A stretch of DNA of 7,343 nucleotides from Candidatus Aerophobota bacterium (GTDB taxonomy: Bacteria; Aerophobota; Aerophobia; Aerophobales; B3-G15), in assembly GCA_014859225.1 (NCBI GenBank), contig JACUUP010000075.1, forward strand, positions 1 to 7,343, in the 5' to 3' direction. The position numbers were made by a program, and so were the translations under genes. The notes under the pieces are model-generated. The model ran no database searches. It had not been told where the DNA came from and saw nothing but the letters and a program-made list of their open reading frames with translations. The first letter of the stretch is position 1. Every line of letters begins with the position of its first letter. Positions 1 to 7,343 of this stretch are shown piece by piece.

Positions 1-2636
1 TACGTCAGGATGAAGAACGGTTTTTAAAGCTGGCAAACGCTATGCCCTTATCAGCCTACGCTATAGCCTCCAGGACGAAGGATAGTAATGGTTACCAAAC
101 TCTTTTCACCTCAAAGAGCATTCTTCAGCATTTTCTTGATGAGGTTGCCGATACCCTGGTTCGTTATGCTGGCGACATTTTTGCCGAGGAACTTGGGGAG
201 GAAAAAGAACAAAGACAATCGTTCAACTTACCTGGTAGCACCTGGCAGAGCCGGCTCATAGAGTCATTGACCGCTGTTAATCCCTCGTTCCATCTACAAG
301 GATTTACTGAACGAGGCATTCCCGAAACCTTGAATAAGTGGCTTCATCCTGGTATGGTGGCTCAGCGAGAGGAGGATTACCGCATATGTTTTCGGCTGGA
401 GATGCCATCTGGTAGCGAAAAAAATGATAACCAGTGGCAGGTAAGCTATTTACTCCAGGCAGTAGATGATCCCAGCCTCCTTGTTCCCACCGAGAGGATA
501 TGGAAATCTTCCAAAAGGGAGCTTCACTTCTTAAACCGCACCTTCAAGGATCCTCAAGAAAAACTCTTAATGGCATTGGCTGAAGCTTCTTGCATCTTCC
601 CCCCTCTCGCTGAGAGTTTACAAGAGGCATGCCCGTCCTGTATGCACATGAAGACCAATGAGGCATGGAATTTTTTAGACACCGCCGCTCCCATTTTGCA
701 GCAATCAGGGTTCACTGTTTTACTTCCCCAGGAGCTTACGCGGGCAGGGCAGCGTAGAATCAAAGCCAGGATGAGGATTGGCTCAAGAAAATCAACGGAT
801 AAGAATGGAAGCGAAAGTGGGACATTCGCTCTTCCTTCTCTCATAGATTACCACTGGGAAATAGCCCTGGGAGATGAGGTGTTAACCCTCTCTGAGTTTA
901 AACAGATAGCTCGTCTCAAGCAACCTCTTGTTCACTGGCGAGACCGCTGGGTAATAATCAACCCCCAGGAAGCAGCTGACATGAAGAAGCTCTTTGATGA
1001 GGCAAGCTCAGGAACATTGAGTTTTCGCGAAGCTTTATCCGCCACTCTTTTAGGGGAAAAAGACCAGATTGAGCTTGCCAGCCCGGTGGAGGTTGTTGCC
1101 ACGGGGAATATGAAACATATTGTGGACATGCTCAAAACTGACAAAACGGCAAGGTGCGTTGAGGTTCCTTCTACCTTTCAGGGGAAACTACGAGCATATC
1201 AGGAGAGGGGATTGACGTGGCTTACCAGTATGACCAATTTGGGTTTTGGTGTGTGCCTGGCTGATGATATGGGACTTGGAAAAACGATTCAGTTGATAGC
1301 CTGGTTACTGCACCGAAAGGAGCATATGTGCGCTAACGCCCATCCTGTGCTCATTGTGTGCCCAACATCGGTACTGGGTAACTGGCAAAGGGAAATAGAG
1401 CGATTCGGGCCTGAGCTTTCGGTTCTTCCTCATCATGGTTTAGAGCGAGCCACCTCAAAGAAGTCCATGGAAAAGAGTTTTTCCCCTCACGTGGTGGTTT
1501 TGACAACCTACTCCCTGGCAAGGCGAGATAGAGAACTTCTCTCAGAGATTGAGTGGGGAGCCGTTGTGCTGGATGAGGCGCAAAACATAAAAAACCCTTA
1601 CGCTCAACAAGCCAGGGCAATTCGTCAATTCAAGGCACACACTAAAATTGCTCTTACGGGAACACCTGTAGAGAATAGACTCTCGGAGCTTTGGTCTATT
1701 TTTGAATTTCTCAATTCTCACTACCTTGGTCCCTTAAAACAATTCAAACGCACTTTTGCTCTTCCCATAGAACGATATAAAGATCCAGAAGCGACACAGA
1801 AATTCAAGAAACTCACGCAACCGTTTTTATTGAGGAGGTTAAAAACGGACAAAACTATCATTGCTGATCTTCCCGAGAAAAACGAAATGAAAGTTTTTTG
1901 CACGTTAACTCGAGAACAGGCTACGTTATACCAGGCTCTTCTGGATGAGACAATGGAAAAAATAGAAAAAAGTGAAGGTATGGCACGACGTGGTCTTGTC
2001 CTTTCTCTTATAACCTCTCTCAAGCAGATATGTAATCATCCCTCTCTTTATCTAAGAGAAGGCGCCTCTTCATTTTCTCGTTCAGGCAAACTCAAGCGAC
2101 TGGTTGAAATGAGCGAGGAAGTCATGGAAGAAAAAAGTTATGCCCTCATCTTCACCCAGTTTCGGGAAATGGGACACCTTTTAGCTCGCTGCCTGGAAGA
2201 CAAATTCGGGGAAACGGTTCCCTTTCTTCACGGTGGTGTTCTGCGTGCAAAAAGAGATGAGATGGTTCGCTCTTTCCAGGAAAAAGAAGATGCGTATCCT
2301 CTTTTTCTCATCTCCCTCAGGGCAGGCGGGACGGGCCTTAATTTAACGCGGGCAAGTTTTGTATTTCATTTTGACAGATGGTGGAATCCTGCGGTGGAAA
2401 ATCAAGCTACTGACCGTGCCTTTCGCATAGGACAAAAAAAGAATGTGCAGGTGTACAAAATGGTGTGTCTCGGCACCATGGAGGAGAGGATAGACAGGAT
2501 GCTGGAGGAAAAAAGGGATCTGGCGGATAGAATAATAGGTGCAGGCGAGGGATGGATTACAGAGCTATCCAATGACAAGCTTCGTGAAATACTAACCTTA
2601 AGCAAAGAAGCGGCAATTGATTTGGAGGATGAGTAA
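1..2636 (+). CDS. SNF2/RapA-family DEAD/DEAH-box helicase-like ATPase, 5' partial
   Basis: This is a Swi2/Snf2-type superfamily 2 ATPase, a motor that translocates on double-stranded DNA to remodel or displace bound proteins. Numbered from the Met at base 42, the motifs are: Walker A ADDMGLGKT near 407-415, the Ia block VCPTSVLGNW after it, DEAQ at 511-514, TGTP at 539-542, LIFTQF at 702-707, SLRAGGTGLNLT at 758-769 and the arginine-finger motif RAFRIGQ at 792-798. The roughly 390 residues before Walker A match the SNF2-associated domain of bacterial members (cue: DDPSLLVPTERIW). The frame is open to the window edge and its upstream codons (DEERFLKLANAMP) fit the family, so Met42 is probably internal; full bacterial homologues are usually about 1000 residues. 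The stop overlaps the SWIM gene start by one base. All catalytic motifs look intact. Biological role in bacteria is largely unknown. Confidence 0.95.
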   Translation, partial: RQDEERFLKLANAMPLSAYAIASRTKDSNGYQTLFTSKSILQHFLDEVADTLVRYAGDIFAEELGEEKEQRQSFNLPGSTWQSRLIESLTAVNPSFHLQGFTERGIPETLNKWLHPGMVAQREEDYRICFRLEMPSGSEKNDNQWQVSYLLQAVDDPSLLVPTERIWKSSKRELHFLNRTFKDPQEKLLMALAEASCIFPPLAESLQEACPSCMHMKTNEAWNFLDTAAPILQQSGFTVLLPQELTRAGQRRIKARMRIGSRKSTDKNGSESGTFALPSLIDYHWEIALGDEVLTLSEFKQIARLKQPLVHWRDRWVIINPQEAADMKKLFDEASSGTLSFREALSATLLGEKDQIELASPVEVVATGNMKHIVDMLKTDKTARCVEVPSTFQGKLRAYQERGLTWLTSMTNLGFGVCLADDMGLGKTIQLIAWLLHRKEHMCANAHPVLIVCPTSVLGNWQREIERFGPELSVLPHHGLERATSKKSMEKSFSPHVVVLTTYSLARRDRELLSEIEWGAVVLDEAQNIKNPYAQQARAIRQFKAHTKIALTGTPVENRLSELWSIFEFLNSHYLGPLKQFKRTFALPIERYKDPEATQKFKKLTQPFLLRRLKTDKTIIADLPEKNEMKVFCTLTREQATLYQALLDETMEKIEKSEGMARRGLVLSLITSLKQICNHPSLYLREGASSFSRSGKLKRLVEMSEEVMEEKSYALIFTQFREMGHLLARCLEDKFGETVPFLHGGVLRAKRDEMVRSFQEKEDAYPLFLISLRAGGTGLNLTRASFVFHFDRWWNPAVENQATDRAFRIGQKKNVQVYKMVCLGTMEERIDRMLEEKRDLADRIIGAGEGWITELSNDKLREILTLSKEAAIDLEDE

Positions 2637-2638
2637 TG
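2624..2638 (+). promoter_or_regulatory. Shine-Dalgarno and TAATG coupling junction for the SWIM gene
   Basis: GGAGG (2624-2628) lies inside the last codons of the SNF2 gene, seven bases before ATG 2636. The stop TAA and the start ATG share the A at 2636. This layout favours translational coupling, so that both proteins are made in a linked ratio, and it fixes the SWIM gene start. Confidence 0.8.
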
Positions 2639-3484
2639 GCAAAAAAGGGCGCATTTGGTAGAACCTGGTGGGCTGAAAAGTGGATAGAAGCCCTGGAAAT
2701 TTTGGGCAGGGATTATTCAAATAGGCTCCCACGGGGTCGCACCTATGCCCGCAGGGGAGCGGTGAGGGATTTGATAATTCTTCCCGGGGAGGTGAGGGCG
2801 AAGGTGCAGGGAACAAGACGCACTCCTTACCAGGTCAGGATAAAACTTCCAGCTTTAACCAACAAGCAGTGGCAAAACGTCATTACAGCATTAGCCAAAC
2901 AGGCTATCTTTGCTGCCAAACTTCTCGTCGGGGAAATGCCATCAACCATAGATGAGGCATTCAACGGTTGTGGTCTTTCTCTTTTTCCCGTGAAGGCAAC
3001 CGAGCTTAAAACAAGTTGTTCTTGTCCTGATTGGGCTAATCCCTGTAAACATATAGCTGCCACGCATTACATCTTAGGTCAATCATTCGATAGCGATCCC
3101 TTCTTACTTTTTGAGCTGCGGGGAAGGACGAAAGAAAAACTTATGGAAGAGCTAAGAGAAGCCCGAAGTGCACATGGTTGCGTAGAAACAAAATCTTTGC
3201 CGCAAGAAGAAAAAGAACCTGCAGAGCAACTTCTCCCCGATACTCTCAATGAAGAAGAATTTGTTTCACTGGGAGCATCCCTGGAGGATTTACATTTTCA
3301 CATTAGCCAGCCACAGGGAAAATCTACCACGTTGAGCCGGCTGGGGCCTTTATCGGGTATTGCTGGGGGGCATCTTTTTACCGTACAGCTTGAGCAAATC
3401 TATAGCTATGTAAGTTTCCTCGCTCAGGAGATTGCACTTGCTTCTCCAAAAAAGAGAAAAAGAGGGTCAGATCTTGACATTTAA
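2636..3484 (+). CDS. SWIM zinc-finger protein, partner of the SNF2 ATPase
   Basis: This is a 282-residue protein of the bacterial SWIM family. The N-terminal block (GRTWWAEKWIEALE, then RLPRGRTYARRG and a TPYQVRIKLP segment) is typical of SWIM proteins encoded beside SNF2 ATPases. The zinc-binding motif CSCPDWANPCKH gives ligands Cys128, Cys130, Cys137 and His139 (CxCx6CxH). The family is predicted to bind DNA or protein and to associate with SNF2 motors. The start is fixed by a GGAGG seven bases upstream and the one-base overlap with the SNF2 stop. The C-terminal region (LSRLGPLSG and the following helix) still fits the family. The last residues, about KKRKRGSDLDI and the TAA, are encoded by a repeat that recurs elsewhere in the window, so the natural tail was probably replaced. 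Precise biochemical function is unknown. Confidence 0.92.
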   Translation: MAKKGAFGRTWWAEKWIEALEILGRDYSNRLPRGRTYARRGAVRDLIILPGEVRAKVQGTRRTPYQVRIKLPALTNKQWQNVITALAKQAIFAAKLLVGEMPSTIDEAFNGCGLSLFPVKATELKTSCSCPDWANPCKHIAATHYILGQSFDSDPFLLFELRGRTKEKLMEELREARSAHGCVETKSLPQEEKEPAEQLLPDTLNEEEFVSLGASLEDLHFHISQPQGKSTTLSRLGPLSGIAGGHLFTVQLEQIYSYVSFLAQEIALASPKKRKRGSDLDI

Positions 3485-3517
3485 GTTTTCCATCCTGACA
3501 AAGAGCCAAAAAAACGA
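3448..3517 (+). repeat. Left arm of dispersed repeat, copy 1
   Basis: This A-rich lead-in is followed by GAGGGTCAGATCTTGACATT, an AAGTTTT run, TCCTGACAA, GAGCC and an A-run. The same order of words occurs at 6231-6299, with only scattered substitutions and small indels over about 65 bases. The copy overlaps the end of the SWIM gene and contains its stop codon (3482-3484). Confidence 0.85.
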
Positions 3518-3523
3518 TATGAA
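3495..3523 (+). promoter_or_regulatory. Candidate promoter inside the left arm, upstream of the LEA14-like gene
   Basis: CTGACA (3495-3500) and TATGAA (3518-3523) are 17 bases apart, five and four matches respectively to the sigma70 hexamers. Initiation would fall near 3530, just before the ATG at 3543, leaving a very short leader. The -35 word lies in the conserved arm and is also present in the second copy. This is suggestive only. Confidence 0.3.
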
Positions 3524-3542
3524 CTGTAACGTGAGTTCCTAC

Positions 3543-4178
3543 ATGTCAAAGTCAATCCTAAAGGGACCTTTTCGGGTTGTAGCACCTCTCATTTTCATAA
3601 CTTTTATGCTATCTACCGCTATCCATGCAGAGCAGATGCTGCATATGCCTGCAGAAAATACTCCTCTTGTTTCCATAGCTATCTCTGAAGATGAAAACTT
3701 GCCCGAGCAACCAGCAGCGAAACCCCTCATCCTCATCCCCAGGCTTCATATTGAAGCTATCTCTAACTCATGGGGTGAAGTTTCCCTGGATTCAACGACC
3801 ATACATACGCACATACTGGTGAACAATCCACACCTTCACCTTATCCCCATGGAAGTTGACTGCAGCATATACCTCAATGATATAGAGATGGTGAGCGGTC
3901 TCGGGAAAGACCTGCAGATTGAAGAATGTGCAAGCGGAAGCTCAATTCGCTTTACAAGCAGGATAGACAACGAAAACATAATGAAGTGGTGGGTATCTCA
4001 CATTATGAATGGAGAGAAAACCCAGTATCGTTTAGGATATATTCTTATGATAAAGTGGCTGGGAGTAAGAATAGCTAATTGGCCAAATAGTATTGAAGGC
4101 AGCTTTGAAACTGATTTTTTCGGGAACAAACAAAAACAGGAAGAATACGAGAGTGAACTACATGAGGCGGGCGATTAA
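3543..4178 (+). CDS. LEA14/WHy-domain-like secreted protein
   Basis: This is a 211-residue protein predicted to be exported. The ATG at 3543 was chosen because it gives a short basic n-region (MSKSILKGPFR), a hydrophobic core and a plausible signal-peptidase I site after Ala29 (AIHA, then EQ). In-frame ATG 3519 and TTG 3432 would bury that signal. No strong ribosome-binding site is visible; GTGAG at 3531 is the best. No lipobox Cys is present. The mature part, from about residue 65, resembles LEA14/WHy (LEA type 2) domains: WGEVSLDSTTIHTHILVNNP from Trp77, then IYLNDIEMVSG, and the block WWVSHIMNGEKT from Trp149. I associate that last block with euryarchaeal LEA14-like proteins. These domains are linked to desiccation or stress tolerance, with no known enzymatic activity. 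The gene is enclosed by repeat arms. Confidence 0.75.
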   Translation: MSKSILKGPFRVVAPLIFITFMLSTAIHAEQMLHMPAENTPLVSIAISEDENLPEQPAAKPLILIPRLHIEAISNSWGEVSLDSTTIHTHILVNNPHLHLIPMEVDCSIYLNDIEMVSGLGKDLQIEECASGSSIRFTSRIDNENIMKWWVSHIMNGEKTQYRLGYILMIKWLGVRIANWPNSIEGSFETDFFGNKQKQEEYESELHEAGD

Positions 4179-4184
4179 TTACCT

Positions 4185-4220
4185 AAAATAAATTTGTCCT
4201 GTTTTCTCACCTTTTCTCAC
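4185..4220 (+). repeat. Right arm of dispersed repeat, copy 1
   Basis: AAATAAATTTGTCC (4186-4199) followed by TTTTCTCAC and TTTTCTCAC matches AAATAAATCTGTCC and its T-rich continuation at 6358-6392. It sits between the convergent LEA14-like and mscS genes and occupies most of the 57-base spacer, which shows no ordinary rho-independent hairpin. Confidence 0.75.
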
Positions 4221-4235
4221 TTCTTCTTAAATAGT

Positions 4236-5042
4236 TCACATACGAAATGTTACATCCACTCTGTTTGAGCTGAGGGAAATATTTTGTTCAGAAAAAACCT
4301 CTTTCAACCGAGGTGCCATCTGTTGGGTAACGAAGCTTTGGAACGCTGGCGTCATAGTAAACATTGCTCTTACAACTACCTGGGGACTTTTTGTCTCTAA
4401 AACGGATACCTGTATCTCACCTTCGTCCAGTTGATGGTAGCGGAAGTAATCCTCCAGCACATCGCGGAGAAGAGATTGTCCCCTCGGCGTGTCTTCTTGT
4501 TTCTGAAGAAAAACATCTACAAATACAGTTACTTTCCCCCTGGTGAAATTTTTAACTGTTGTTATGCTACCATTAAATAAAATGTGCAACTGTCCGCTCA
4601 TATCCCTTATTTTTGTGGTTCTAAGACCTATCTCTTCAATGTAGCCTGTAGAGCCTGCAATTTCCACGTAATCTCCTACATGGATGTTCCTTTCAAAAAG
4701 AAGTGTTATGCCGGATAGGACATCTCTTATGAAGTTTTGAGCTCCGAAACCTATGGCAAATCCTACCACTCCGGCACTTACCAGAAGGGGGGTGAGGTTC
4801 ACGTTAAATAATCTAAAGAGAAAACCCAGGACAAAGAAAGCAATGGCATACTTGAGAACACTCTTTATTAGTGTAGCAAGTGTTTTTGTCTCCTGAGGAG
4901 TGCCATAAGGCCGCTCCTCCATCTTTTTTGCAGGGAATAGACGATCAACTATGGCGAAGGTAATTCTTCCCGCTGCATACCCGGCAACAATGATTACGGT
5001 AGACCAGATTAGCTTTACAGCCCAGTTTTCTATTCCAAACAT
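4236..5042 (-). CDS. mscS: Small-conductance mechanosensitive channel, MscS family
   Basis: This 268-residue MscS-family channel releases solutes when membrane tension rises under hypo-osmotic shock. Three transmembrane helices are visible: about 8-33, 57-79 and the glycine/alanine-rich pore helix 84-112 (SAGVVGFAIGFGAQNFIRD). The pore helix leads into the diagnostic beta domain, with FERNIHVGDYVEI at 117-129, EEIGLRTTKIRD and NGSITTVKNFTRG. Residues 171-268 form the cytoplasmic alpha/beta portion. Length is close to the canonical E. coli protein. The loop motif usually seen as IPNG reads ILFNG here, a small departure. The ATG at 5042 has a GGAG nine bases upstream (5052-5055) and a good promoter further up. 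The gene is convergent with the LEA14-like gene and divergent from the 2TM-domain gene. The family assignment is secure; the subgroup is not. Confidence 0.93.
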   Translation of the reverse strand: MFGIENWAVKLIWSTVIIVAGYAAGRITFAIVDRLFPAKKMEERPYGTPQETKTLATLIKSVLKYAIAFFVLGFLFRLFNVNLTPLLVSAGVVGFAIGFGAQNFIRDVLSGITLLFERNIHVGDYVEIAGSTGYIEEIGLRTTKIRDMSGQLHILFNGSITTVKNFTRGKVTVFVDVFLQKQEDTPRGQSLLRDVLEDYFRYHQLDEGEIQVSVLETKSPQVVVRAMFTMTPAFQSFVTQQMAPRLKEVFSEQNISLSSNRVDVTFRM

Positions 5043-5083
5043 ATGTGTTTTCTCCGCAAAAAAATGAGTTTTCCTTTGCTCTT

Positions 5084-5112
5084 ATTTTACCACCCTCTCG
5101 TTTTTCTGTCCA
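5084..5112 (-). promoter_or_regulatory. Sigma70-type promoter of the mscS gene
   Basis: On the minus strand, TGGACA (5107-5112) and TAAAAT (5084-5089) are separated by exactly 17 bases, each matching five of six consensus positions. Transcription would start near 5077, giving a leader of about 35 bases that contains the GGAG ribosome-binding site. Confidence 0.6.
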
Positions 5113-5123
5113 CCCCCCACCTC

Positions 5124-5152
5124 TTGCTCTTTTTAAAGGATTATCCTAATAT
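5124..5152 (+). promoter_or_regulatory. Candidate divergent promoter for the 2TM-domain gene
   Basis: TTGCTC (5124-5129) and TAATAT (5147-5152) are 17 bases apart in an AT-rich patch, just outside the mscS promoter and facing the other way. The transcript would have a leader of about 220 bases. The match is moderate and other starts closer to the gene are possible. Confidence 0.3.
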
Positions 5153-5378
5153 ATATATGCAACAGGAGCATTCGTAGAATTCTTACGCAACGTATAAAAA
5201 GAACGTAGCAACATTCACTACAGAAGTGATAGTGCAGTGAAATTTCCAAAAGATGCTTTCACGCCAAAGCTCATAAATACATTTGAGGGTTTCGGATTCA
5301 AAGTGATCATTAAAAAAAGGTTGCCAGACCTTACATGTCAAGATCTGAACCCCTTGCATAGTATACCAGGAGATACAT
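5153..5378 (+). other. Gene-free leader region upstream of the 2TM-domain gene
   Basis: I see no convincing gene here. The stretch holds TTCACT and AGTGAA half-sites around 5214-5242 that could pair in RNA, with a nested CACTA/TAGTG pair. It also holds an inverted copy of the dispersed repeat core (5325-5353) and the AGGAG ribosome-binding site at 5368-5372. A 68-codon open frame on the minus strand crosses it and runs into the 2TM gene start; it has no family cues I recognise and is probably chance or a remnant. Confidence 0.5.
5325..5353 (-). repeat. Inverted copy of the dispersed repeat core
   Basis: Read on the minus strand, GGGGTTCAGATCTTGACATG followed by TAAGG matches GGGTCAGATCTTGACATTTAAG at 3464-3485, with one extra T and one substitution. 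The copy also has CAGACCTT and AAGATCTG as outer half-sites (7 of 8 pairing), so it can form a hairpin. It ends 15 bases before the ribosome-binding site of the 2TM-domain gene. The longer arm sequence is not clearly present. Confidence 0.7.
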
Positions 5379-6227
5379 ATGGAAGACAATGACTTGAGGA
5401 AAATTGCTCGCAGAAGAGTAGGGTCTAAGCGTCATGCAGCAGTATACGTTGTGGTTATTTTATTTCTCGGATTAATCAATCTTTTTACTTTCAGGCACTT
5501 TCCCTGGTTTTTATTTTGCGCCGCAGGGTGGGGCATTGGAGTGCTCTTTCACCTGCTCTTTGCCTATGGATTTATGGGAGATGCCCTCAATATAGAACGA
5601 GAATTTCAAAGGTTGAAACGTAAAATGAGCAAAACGGCGGAAAAACCTGAAAACAAAGATGAGCAGTACAGGCGAAGCGATTTTGAAGAGCGAGTGGAGC
5701 ACTTTGCCAGTAGCGCCAGGCAGGTTGGTCAACGAGCAGATGCTTATTTTCAAAGCACAAAAGAGGGAAGGTTAGTATCCTGTAGCGTTGCTATTGCCTG
5801 GAGTATCATTGTTCTCATTTTCTTTCATTTTTTCCGTCACTACATCGCCTACTATCACTACGAAACAATCAATCAGGTTGGTAGGTGGGTAAGAGAGCCA
5901 CTCCTTACGGAAAACTTTCATGCAGTTTTACCCATTCTCACCCTAACGCTCATGCTATCCATTGTGGGTAATTGTATCTTGATTATTTTTGATAGATACC
6001 TGCTCAGGCAAGCTATTTCCATAATCCTCAATGTATTTGGACTTGCAACTGTGTTAACGTTTCTTTTCGTGTTTCCCTTTAACTTTACTGTCATACCTAT
6101 TCCTTTTGCTGCGCACATCTTAAGCTTTGTCGTGGCGTTAGCCTTCATTGGTATTTCCATTGGATTTATTGTAGGCATCGTGGTAAAAGCTGTGAGATTA
6201 ACTGTTACTCTTGTCCGCGGGATATAG
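5379..6227 (+). CDS. 2TM-domain integral membrane protein of unknown function
   Basis: This is a 282-residue polytopic membrane protein. The N-terminal part resembles the bacterial 2TM domain: a basic lead-in RKIARRRV, helix about 20-37, a PWF turn, helix about 43-65 with GWGIGVLFHLLFAYG, then a charged segment. Residues 70-130 are hydrophilic and probably cytosolic, with a likely coiled region. Four further helices follow near 133-152, 182-204, 210-233 and 242-270, with notable cues IIFDRYLLR and VFPFNFTVIP. 2TM domains often occur in sensor or envelope proteins, but the C-terminal half belongs to no family I can name, so no function is assigned. The ATG is supported by AGGAG six bases upstream. 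A repeat element begins four bases after the stop. The protein appears complete. Confidence 0.8.
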   Translation: MEDNDLRKIARRRVGSKRHAAVYVVVILFLGLINLFTFRHFPWFLFCAAGWGIGVLFHLLFAYGFMGDALNIEREFQRLKRKMSKTAEKPENKDEQYRRSDFEERVEHFASSARQVGQRADAYFQSTKEGRLVSCSVAIAWSIIVLIFFHFFRHYIAYYHYETINQVGRWVREPLLTENFHAVLPILTLTLMLSIVGNCILIIFDRYLLRQAISIILNVFGLATVLTFLFVFPFNFTVIPIPFAAHILSFVVALAFIGISIGFIVGIVVKAVRLTVTLVRGI

Positions 6228-6230
6228 CGG

Positions 6231-6392
6231 AGAAAAGAGAAAAGAGGGTCAGACCTTGACATTGAAGTTTTGCTCCTGACAATGAGCCTTGCAAAAAAAT
6301 TGACACAAACCTTAGTAGTTTTGACACTAAAAAGATTTAGCAGTAAATTAACGTAAAAAATAAATCTGTCCCCTTTTTTTCACTTTTTCTCT
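6231..6392 (+). mobile_element. Compact inverted-repeat (MITE-like) element B
   Basis: This non-coding element of about 160 bases has imperfect inverted ends. The left end reads AGAAAAGAGAAAAGAGGGTC followed by AGA; the right end, on the opposite strand, reads AGAGAAAAAGTGAAAAAAAG followed by GGGACAGA. Left and right arms match those at 3448-3517 and 4185-4220. It contains three TTGACA words (6256, 6300 and 6321). A transcript through it could fold into a long imperfect stem that might stop transcription or be processed. It encodes no protein and no obvious target duplication flanks it. It resembles non-autonomous or REP-type repeats, but the mobilising enzyme is not in the window. Confidence 0.6.
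6321..6349 (+). promoter_or_regulatory. Promoter-like pair inside element B
   Basis: A perfect TTGACA (6321-6326) lies 17 bases from TAAATT (6344-6349, four of six). It would start transcripts near 6356, reading out of the element into the broken gene at 6415. The spacing and perfect -35 make it plausible. Confidence 0.4.
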
Positions 6393-6414
6393 GAGCATCA
6401 AGGAGGGATACAAA

Positions 6415-6652
6415 ATGCAAGCAGGTATTATCTACGAAGAAAAAATATTTTCAAAGTGGAACGCAGGTATATTCGCGGTAGCTATGACAATTTTTCTCGT
6501 TCTCCTTCTCTATCAGGCGGTTGGTCTACAACATTATTGGTGCTCCCCGTGTCGTTTTTTCATTGAAAAAAGGCACGTTTAGAGAATTTGTATTTTCTAC
6601 CTCCAACCCCCAAAAGGTGATGGAACTGGTCAAGCAGAAAGTTGGCAAGTAA
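6415..6652 (+). pseudogene. Small membrane/PH-like protein gene with internal deletion and frameshift
   Basis: AGGAGG (6401-6406) lies eight bases before ATG 6415. The first frame encodes about 36 credible residues: MQAGIIYEEKIFSKWNAG, then a hydrophobic helix ending LLLYQAVG. After that it drifts into QHYWCSPC and stops at 6580. From base 6524 the next frame reads VYNIIGAPRVVFSLKKGTF, continues through REFVFSTSNPQKVMELVKQK and ends at TAA 6650. That is the usual C-terminus of small bacterial membrane proteins with a PH-like domain (N-terminal helix, then a beta-rich domain ending in a RVV-FSLKKG strand and an EFVFST-NP helix). The intervening domain, which I estimate at about 100 codons, is missing, and the two remnants are joined out of frame near 6520-6524. 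A functional product is unlikely. The family name is from memory. Confidence 0.7.
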
Positions 6653-6655
6653 AGG

Positions 6656-6690
6656 CATCAGGTCTTGACATCTGACATTTGCCAGATAAG
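6656..6690 (+). repeat. Dispersed repeat core, copy 4, with short palindrome
   Basis: CATCAGGTCTTGACAT (6656-6671) shares the CAG-CTTGACAT core with the copies at 3468 and 6250. It is followed by an imperfect palindrome, ATCTGACATTTGCCAGAT (6670-6687), in which seven of eight outer pairs match. It lies four bases after the stop of the broken PH-like gene. The longer arm sequence is not recognisable, so this is a degenerate or different family member. Confidence 0.55.
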
Positions 6691-6947
6691 GTGCAAGCGT
6701 TGGTTTTTTGCAAACTGCCATCAGAGCATCCTGAAAAAAAACTAATCCATCAACAAAACAAAGTTATGTATCTTACCTTTCCTCATTTAGGCAAATGCTT
6801 GTTACGATGGTCAAAAGCATTGCCCGGGGATTGGCAGAAATTCTAACATGTATGCCAGAAGAAAAAGAGCGCATTCAAACTATCAGGAGATTTATTGCCC
6901 CTATTCGCTTCTATAGGAATTGGCAACTGGAAGACTTTCTGCAATAG
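6679..6947 (+). pseudogene. Unassigned short open frames, possible gene remnant
   Basis: Two overlapping short frames fill this stretch. One runs 6679-6846 and contains ALVFCKLPSEHPEKK and VMYLTFPHLGK (Met codon at 6766). The other runs 6795-6947 from an ATG, 50 residues, with KSIARGLAEIL and ERIQTIRRFIAPIRFYRNW. Neither has a good ribosome-binding site. The residue patterns look protein-like, and a single frameshift near 6790 would join them, so a broken gene is possible. TFPHLG faintly recalls TFPHMGN in proteins related to acyl-CoA dehydratase activases, but that is too short to assign. Otherwise nothing is seen in this 300-base interval. Confidence 0.25.
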
Positions 6948-6956
6948 GTGCTACAA

Positions 6957-7328
6957 TTAGTAACGCCGCACTCGAATCTTTGTCTCATCAAGAACGACTA
7001 TAAAAGACTCACTTTCAAGGTTCTCTGATTCAATATCACGAATAACCTTGTCTAACCCTGTCTTTATTTTCCCTACATCAAAGAAGGTATATCTTAACAG
7101 GATGAGATTAAGTTTTTGTCTCCTTGCATTAAGTTCAACTAATCGTCCGAAGTCCTTGTCTGCAGAGATTATAATTCTTTCTTCTTTCTGGGCAATTTGA
7201 ATCAACTGTTCGTCAGAGCATCCAGTAAGGGAGTTTTCTTGAGCTATAGATAAGACATCATAACCTCTATCTTCAAGGTAGGTAATTATCTCTGAATGGA
7301 TGTTTTCGTCAGCGAGGATCCTTAACAC
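6957..7328 (-). CDS. DUF5615 family PIN-like protein, probable toxin
   Basis: This is a 123-residue protein of the DUF5615 PIN-like family, predicted metal-dependent ribonucleases often paired with a small antitoxin, commonly DUF433. The N-terminus ILADENI carries Asp7 and Glu8, followed by a helix and GYDV at 22-25. CSDEQLIQIA supplies Asp39, and IISADKDFGRL supplies Asp57 and Asp59. These acidic residues fit the expected PIN-type active site, so the protein looks catalytically intact and has the usual length. The start codon is GTG at 7328; a purine-rich GAGGTGGGG lies at 7335-7343, just before it. A TAG three bases upstream of the GTG in another frame may be the end of a preceding gene. 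No terminator is visible after the stop at 6957. Toxicity is inferred from the family, not shown. Confidence 0.88.
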   Translation of the reverse strand: MLRILADENIHSEIITYLEDRGYDVLSIAQENSLTGCSDEQLIQIAQKEERIIISADKDFGRLVELNARRQKLNLILLRYTFFDVGKIKTGLDKVIRDIESENLESESFIVVLDETKIRVRRY

Positions 7329-7331
7329 GAG

Positions 7332-7343
7332 CTACCCCACCTC
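7332..7343 (-). other. Possible 3' end of an upstream partner gene
   Basis: Reading the minus strand from the window edge, one frame gives Glu-Val-Gly then TAG (7332-7334), three bases before the DUF5615 GTG. DUF5615 genes commonly follow a small antitoxin gene at this kind of spacing, so this may be its end. Twelve bases cannot prove it. Confidence 0.2.

What the first reader, a model, noticed from the sequence alone, without database searches (positions are those of the whole stretch)
3451..4220. A complete secreted-protein gene enclosed between the two arms of a compact repeat
The sequences flanking the LEA14-like gene match the left and right arms of the 160-bp element at 6231-6392, in the same order and orientation. 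One copy is empty and the other holds a gene whose WWVSHI block looks archaeal. This is the pattern expected if a non-autonomous element had captured and moved a gene. Independent insertion of two repeats is the main alternative.
Basis: partly seen in the sequence, partly recalled or inferred. Interest (0 to 1): 0.72.

Follow-up and report, generated by a model that had tools for sequence, protein, structure and literature searches.

The report
Gene inside transposase-linked repeat arms
In an uncultured bacterium (Candidatus Aerophobetes), a gene for a small, probably secreted LEA14-type protein sits between the two end-repeats of a dispersed DNA unit that elsewhere in the same genome encloses a toxin-type gene pair; this suggests, without proving it, that repeats tied to two stand-alone transposases can enclose and perhaps carry ordinary genes.

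Summary
The arms are real. Left arm 3461-3537 and right arm 4185-4216 match the 6231-6392 element in order and orientation, beyond chance. Both belong to GGGGWSAS-type terminal inverted repeats (TIRs) of REP-like tyrosine transposases (TIRYTs). Two such genes lie in the genome, each between matching repeats: C77 (GGGGTCAG) and C2 (GGGGACAG, the right arm). The '160-bp empty copy' is not empty. It is a deletion derivative of a 1.08-kb unit, intact at contig C184: L - promoter - DUF6922 - AbiEii nucleotidyltransferase - R. The window's left arm carries about 47 bp of that unit's interior, so it is a unit end, not one of the many solo L repeats. LEA14 therefore probably sits inside a former unit. 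Movement as a unit is not shown: there is no second filled copy, and the only other LEA14 piece (C219) lies outside an R arm. The gene is native to Aerophobetes, not archaeal. It is also a fusion of the first half of domain 1 with the second half of domain 2 of a two-domain family, joined at the WWVSHI block. Other TIR-bracketed genes (R-M-like C84, beta-CASP C82) hint at a wider pattern; statistics are marginal.

The parts
2636..3484 (+). SWIM zinc-finger gene; its last codons (..RGSDLDI stop) lie in the left arm
   Evidence: Pfam SWIM; relatives end ..AFPAKKKK; stop codon at 3482-3484 inside the repeat
3461..3490 (+). L core repeat AGAGGGTCAGATCTTGACATTTAAGTTTTC (AGGGTCAG, one base off the GGGGWSAS TIR motif)
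   Evidence: 18 strong genome-wide copies
3491..3537 (+). remainder of the left arm: unit interior, ending just before where the unit has its -35 box
   Evidence: match to W6231/C17 unit interior, p<=5e-4; sequences after solo L copies do not match
3543..4178 (+). LEA14/WHy-like gene, 211 aa, N-terminal signal-like helix; N-half from domain 1 and C-half from domain 2 of a two-domain Aerophobetes family (in-frame alternative start 3519)
   Evidence: homologues, fusion test, fold
4185..4216 (+). right arm (R): AAAATAAATTTGTCCTGTTTTCTCACC..., diverged copy of AAATAAATCTGTCCCC (GGGGACAG TIR on the - strand)
   Evidence: about 60 copies genome-wide; same repeat ends the C2 transposase unit
4236..5042 (-). 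mscS-family channel gene, convergent with SWIM and LEA14; right-hand neighbour of the unit
   Evidence: Pfam MS_channel; no orthologue in the order (27-33% only)
6231..6392 (+). 160-bp L-R element: internally deleted derivative of the C184 unit, keeps L, degenerate promoter TTGACA-17-TAAATT, and R
5330..5355 (-). diverged solo L repeat
   Evidence: 1 mismatch in core
6655..6685 (+). diverged L repeat between a duplicated membrane-protein fragment and a pgeF fragment

Best explanation
The LEA14-like gene occupies the interior of a former L-R unit of a TIRYT-type repeat system. Shown: (1) two Y1 (HUH) REP-like transposase genes in this genome lie between inverted repeats of the GGGG(A/T)CAG type; (2) R is the terminal repeat of one of them and L resembles the other's; (3) an L-R unit with promoter, DUF6922 and AbiEii genes exists at C184, and the 160-bp element and several other copies are its deletion derivatives in other genomic contexts; (4) the window's left arm is the left end of that unit, reaching to about 5 bp before the LEA14 ATG, and an R arm follows about 8 bp after its stop. 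Inferred: LEA14 replaced the unit's operon by recombination or deletion next to, or inside, a unit copy. This left a cassette with both ends that a TIRYT could in principle cut and move in trans as single-stranded DNA; whether this cassette has ever moved is open.
For: L-R unit family and deletion series. Cargo identity at C184: AbiEii E 1e-15, DUF6922 E 1e-15, PADLOC AbiEii. Unit-specific interior in the left arm. Matching autonomous transposase units (HYH and Y..LNPVRA motifs). Chance of an unrelated right-facing R falling in the 58-bp LEA14-mscS spacer is only about 0.5-1% (post hoc). Of neighbouring single repeats 200-2500 bp apart, 9 of 18 pairs face each other, 4.5 expected, p 0.011; other bracketed genes at C84, C82 and C2.
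Against: R shows only its own 31-35 bp, nothing unit-specific. Without the two transposase units the facing excess is p 0.08, and without the C219 pseudo-copy p 0.15. No second LEA14-filled unit; the C219 LEA14 tail lies outside an R arm and has no R behind it. The MAG holds no transposase flanked by the L type itself. C17, the 95% copy, shares the CGGAG flank of the window copy and may be a strain variant of the same locus with an IS21-type insertion. No close relative gives an empty site.
Confidence: 0.52

Rival explanations
1. Two-step coincidence: a truncated left end of the AbiEii unit lies upstream of LEA14 (as at C6:3752), and an unrelated single R repeat later landed behind the gene. 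Both repeat types favour intergenic sites, so the bracket has no mobile meaning.
For: Truncated left ends exist (C6:3752-3679); about half of R copies are not in dimers; R often abuts gene ends, e.g. 2 bp from a pntB-like ORF at C184; in C219 an R end joins a LEA14 tail on the opposite side.
Against: A right-facing R in the 58-bp spacer has a chance of about 0.5-1%.
Confidence: 0.33
2. LEA14 was already between SWIM and mscS, or a 160-bp L-R element sat there first and LEA14 was inserted into it by another mechanism such as ordinary duplication; the repeats are passengers.
For: LEA14 genes have no fixed neighbourhood in the order; fragments of LEA14, pgeF and a membrane gene are duplicated next to these repeats, as expected from repeat-mediated recombination.
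Against: Tight fit of both arms to the gene (about 5 and 8 bp).
Confidence: 0.15

Closest known systems
TIRYT / TIRtron (terminal-inverted-repeat-associated tyrosine transposases; Di Nocera et al. 2013, PMC3733652; subclass 2.1 of PMC6006769)
   Same: Y1 transposase genes between inverted repeats with the GGGGWSAS motif; repeats also dispersed as singles, dimers and groups; the C77 protein has a C-terminal HTH-like extension
   Different: Here repeats of two types form L-R units that enclose non-transposase genes; the passages of these papers that were read describe no cargo
REPIN-RAYT (Bertels and Rainey 2011, PMC3116915)
   Same: One transposase gene per repeat type, inverted doublets (12 R-R, 13 Lq-Lq), singletons
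   Different: No GTAG tag and no hairpin within a single repeat; units up to 1.9 kb with genes
IS200/IS605-derived non-autonomous elements
   Same: HUH Y1 enzyme family; ends acting in trans is plausible
   Different: Subterminal hairpins not demonstrated; ends are inverted repeats
Type IV TA system AbiEii (PF08843)
   Same: The C184 cargo contains an AbiEii-family nucleotidyltransferase
   Different: Partner is DUF6922, not AbiEi; function untested
Archaeal LEA14-like AF_0446 (PDB 3BUT) and Arabidopsis LEA14 (1XO8)
   Same: Fold of the window protein (Foldseek E 1.2e-8 and 5.8e-5)
   Different: Sequence family belongs to Aerophobetes; signal-like N-terminus; fused half-domains

Membership tests
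TIRYT/TIRtron | Y1 tyrosine transposase related to RAYT | tested here: met
   PF01797 hits; NF047646: C77 90 bits over cut-off 80; C2 79.2 bits, just below; HYH and Y..LNPVRA motifs
TIRYT/TIRtron | gene flanked by terminal inverted repeats with GGGGWSAS | tested here: met
   C77 GGGGTCAG both ends, C2 GGGGACAG both ends
TIRYT/TIRtron | the window's own L and R repeats are such TIRs | tested here: inconclusive
   R is identical to the C2 terminus; L is AGGGTCAG, one base off the motif, with no L-flanked transposase found
TIRYT/TIRtron | transposase cleaves or moves the repeats | not testable with these tools
   needs biochemistry or population reads
REPIN-RAYT | REP palindrome with GT(A/G)G tag | tested here: not met
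   single R and L repeats carry no GTAG tag and no internal hairpin by sequence reading
REPIN-RAYT | inverted repeat doublets | tested here: met
   12 R-R and 13 Lq-Lq tight facing pairs
Unit family (L-AbiEii-R) | L core plus unit interior plus R in order | tested here: met
   window left arm L and interior, R at 4185; the operon itself is absent
AbiEii type IV TA (C184 cargo) | AbiEii nucleotidyltransferase domain | tested here: met
   PF08843 E 1.3e-15, 58 bits over cut-off 22.5
AbiEii type IV TA (C184 cargo) | cognate AbiEi antitoxin partner | tested here: not met
   partner ORF is DUF6922; not filed as a TA system on this evidence
LEA14/WHy (LEA_2) | LEA_2 profile and fold | tested here: inconclusive
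   window protein below Pfam detection, two-domain relatives hit LEA_2; fold match to 3BUT and 1XO8 with a mean pLDDT 64 model

The most novel reading that the evidence does not exclude
TIRYT end-repeats form a trans-mobilised cassette system: any gene set lying between two facing repeats (AbiEii operon, R-M-like pair, beta-CASP RNase, LEA14) can be moved by the stand-alone tyrosine transposases, making these enzymes carriers of defence and other genes.
Probability: 0.22. Interest if true: 0.75.

Novelty: new variant of a known kind. Interest (0 to 1): 0.5.

Why it matters
RAYT/TIRYT transposases are thought to spread only tiny repeats. If their repeats also bracket and move gene modules, including defence-type genes, they would be an overlooked route of gene movement in uncultured bacteria, and the idea is testable from long reads of related MAGs.

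Tried and rejected
Archaeal gene capture: rejected, nearest homologues are in the same order and genome. Empty SWIM-mscS site: not obtainable, mscS orthologue absent in the order and SWIM followed by other genes in relatives. C17 as proof of recent transposition: rejected, shares the window's flank and carries an IS21-type insertion. Right-arm interior homology to unit copies: not significant. C2 L-ALDH-STAS-R as a true unit: ends not complementary above shuffles. TIR complementarity of the window unit itself: not above shuffles, because L and R are of different types, as in C184. R repeat in viral contigs: 3 hits, no Y1 gene in the fetched stretches. Tree of LEA14: too few homologues.

Full report
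Setting. The window is a whole contig (C189, 7343 bp) of a 1.8-Mb MAG of 91% completeness in 273 contigs. Named relatives in the same order are Candidatus Aerophobetes.

Check of the arms. The left arm at 3450-3514 matches the 6231-6392 element at 86%, E 4e-14 genome-wide. The right arm at 4185-4216 matches at 83% over 35 bp and is not expected by chance (0 of 200 shuffles). Both are in the order and orientation stated. The left arm overlaps the SWIM gene's end and supplies its stop codon; relatives' SWIM proteins end at ..AFPAKKKK or soon after. LEA14 starts at ATG 3543 (an in-frame ATG at 3519 lies within the arm) and stops at 4178; R begins about 8 bp later.

What the repeats are. Genome-wide, AAATAAATYTGTCCCCTTTT occurs 60 times at up to 3 mismatches (47 exact; control 6). 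GGGTCAGRYCTTGACA-like sites occur 63 times (control 0). Most R sites are tight inverted R-R pairs or singles. The GGGTCAGGTCTTGCAA variant forms inverted pairs. The L form proper is mostly a solo 30-bp unit. Two Y1 transposase genes explain the families: C77 lies between inverted GGGGTCAGGTCTTGCAA repeats and C2:6358-7119 between inverted R repeats. NCBIfam's REP-associated tyrosine transposase model scores 90 and 79.2 bits against a cut-off of 80. The literature match is TIRYT/TIRtron, whose repeats share GGGGWSAS and occur as singles, dimers and groups (PMC3733652, PMC6006769).

The 'empty' element. Part of the 160-bp element matches C34:684-618 at 85%, including a TTGACA-17-TATAAT promoter. 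Comparing repeat-bearing contigs revealed C184:7395-6312 (- strand): L, promoter TTGACA-17-TATACT, a 104-aa DUF6922 ORF, a 205-aa AbiEii-family nucleotidyltransferase, and R. C219:4509-3909, C6:2289-2142, C17 and the window element are internally deleted copies; C34 is a decayed copy without a clear R. C184 is the only intact copy found. C17 may be the same locus in another strain, since it shares the CGGAG flank and abuts IS21-type genes (gene type read from sequence, not profile-tested).

Does LEA14 sit in such a unit? The left arm continues through 3491-3537 with unit interior (0 and 1 of 2000 shuffles against C17 and W6231), whereas sequences after six solo L copies show nothing. So the left arm is a unit end. 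An unrelated right-facing R in the 58-bp spacer behind LEA14 would occur in about 0.5-1% of cases (post hoc estimate from repeat density). That favours one former unit, but the R arm carries no unit-specific sequence, so the two-step rival stays open.

Was it moved? No other filled copy exists. A 65-nt LEA14 3' piece (91%) in C219 lies just outside an R arm, with no R behind it, so a unit end appears to have landed in a LEA14 paralogue there. Besides repeats, only three stretches of window 3520-7343 recur in the genome: a membrane-gene fragment (C6, 90%), a pgeF start (C219, 86%) and this LEA14 tail. All three lie next to L or R repeats, which fits repeat-linked reshuffling.

Wider pattern. 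Among single repeats 200-2500 bp apart, 9 of 18 adjacent pairs face each other (4.5 expected, p 0.011; p 0.08 without the two transposase units; 0.15 also without C219). Bracketed genes include an N6/N4 methyltransferase with a 158-aa partner ORF at C84 within 34-bp TIRs, and a beta-CASP RNase at C82 within a perfect 24-bp TIR. This is suggestive only.

The gene. Homologues occur in 3 of 16 other genomes of the order (two full two-domain proteins, one partial match), with a two-domain paralogue in the same genome (C59). A scan of 84,980 species found only two loci, both named Aerophobetes (a close-relative pattern search). The window protein's N-half matches domain 1 of G005 (53/87 against 20/81 for domain 2, p 3e-6). 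Its C-half matches domain 2 of C59 (17/38 against 7/44 for domain 1, p 0.007). The switch is at the WWVSHI block, so the gene most likely arose by internal deletion between the two domains. The model (mean pLDDT 64, core mostly 73-87) still folds as one LEA14 domain after an N-terminal helix; best PDB matches are archaeal AF_0446 and Arabidopsis LEA14. The WWVSHI block thus does resemble archaeal LEA14, but by family membership, not recent transfer. Secretion is inferred from the sequence only.

Verdict. Enclosure in a former unit is somewhat more likely than not; movement is unproven.

Noticed in passing
window 3543-4178: LEA14-like protein is a fusion of domain-1 N-half and domain-2 C-half at the repeated WWVSHI motif.
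   Followed up: yes
L157 (C184) 6312-7395, - strand: Intact L-promoter-DUF6922-AbiEii-R unit, placed tightly between two convergent genes; R lies 2 bp from the end of a pntB-like ORF (named from its sequence, not profile-tested).
   Followed up: partly
L105 (C84) 3328-4952: N6/N4 DNA methyltransferase plus 158-aa ORF (possible restriction enzyme) within 34-bp GGGGTCAG-type inverted repeats.
   Followed up: partly
L101 (C82) 6563-8142: Beta-CASP metallo-hydrolase gene within a perfect 24-bp GGGGACAG terminal inverted repeat.
   Followed up: partly
window 6430-6671: Small membrane-protein gene split over two frames; a 90% identical copy at C6:3971-3732 is split in the same way, both flanked by L repeats.
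   Followed up: partly
window 6728-6795: 86% copy of the start of the pgeF-like gene of C219, behind an L repeat in both places.
   Followed up: partly
L160 (C255) 4451-4626: R-R element holding a remnant of the C2 transposase gene: a deletion derivative of the autonomous unit.
   Followed up: no
L092 (C17) 36-3652: IS21-type istA/istB-like genes followed by tandem diverged repeats, abutting an L-R element.
   Followed up: no
window 42-3484: SNF2-helicase and SWIM gene pair is kept together in several relatives of the order (G016, G008, G002, G006).
   Followed up: no
L210 3653-3846: Viral contig with four R-type GGGGACAGATTTAT repeats in one orientation and no Y1 gene in the fetched stretch.
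   Followed up: no
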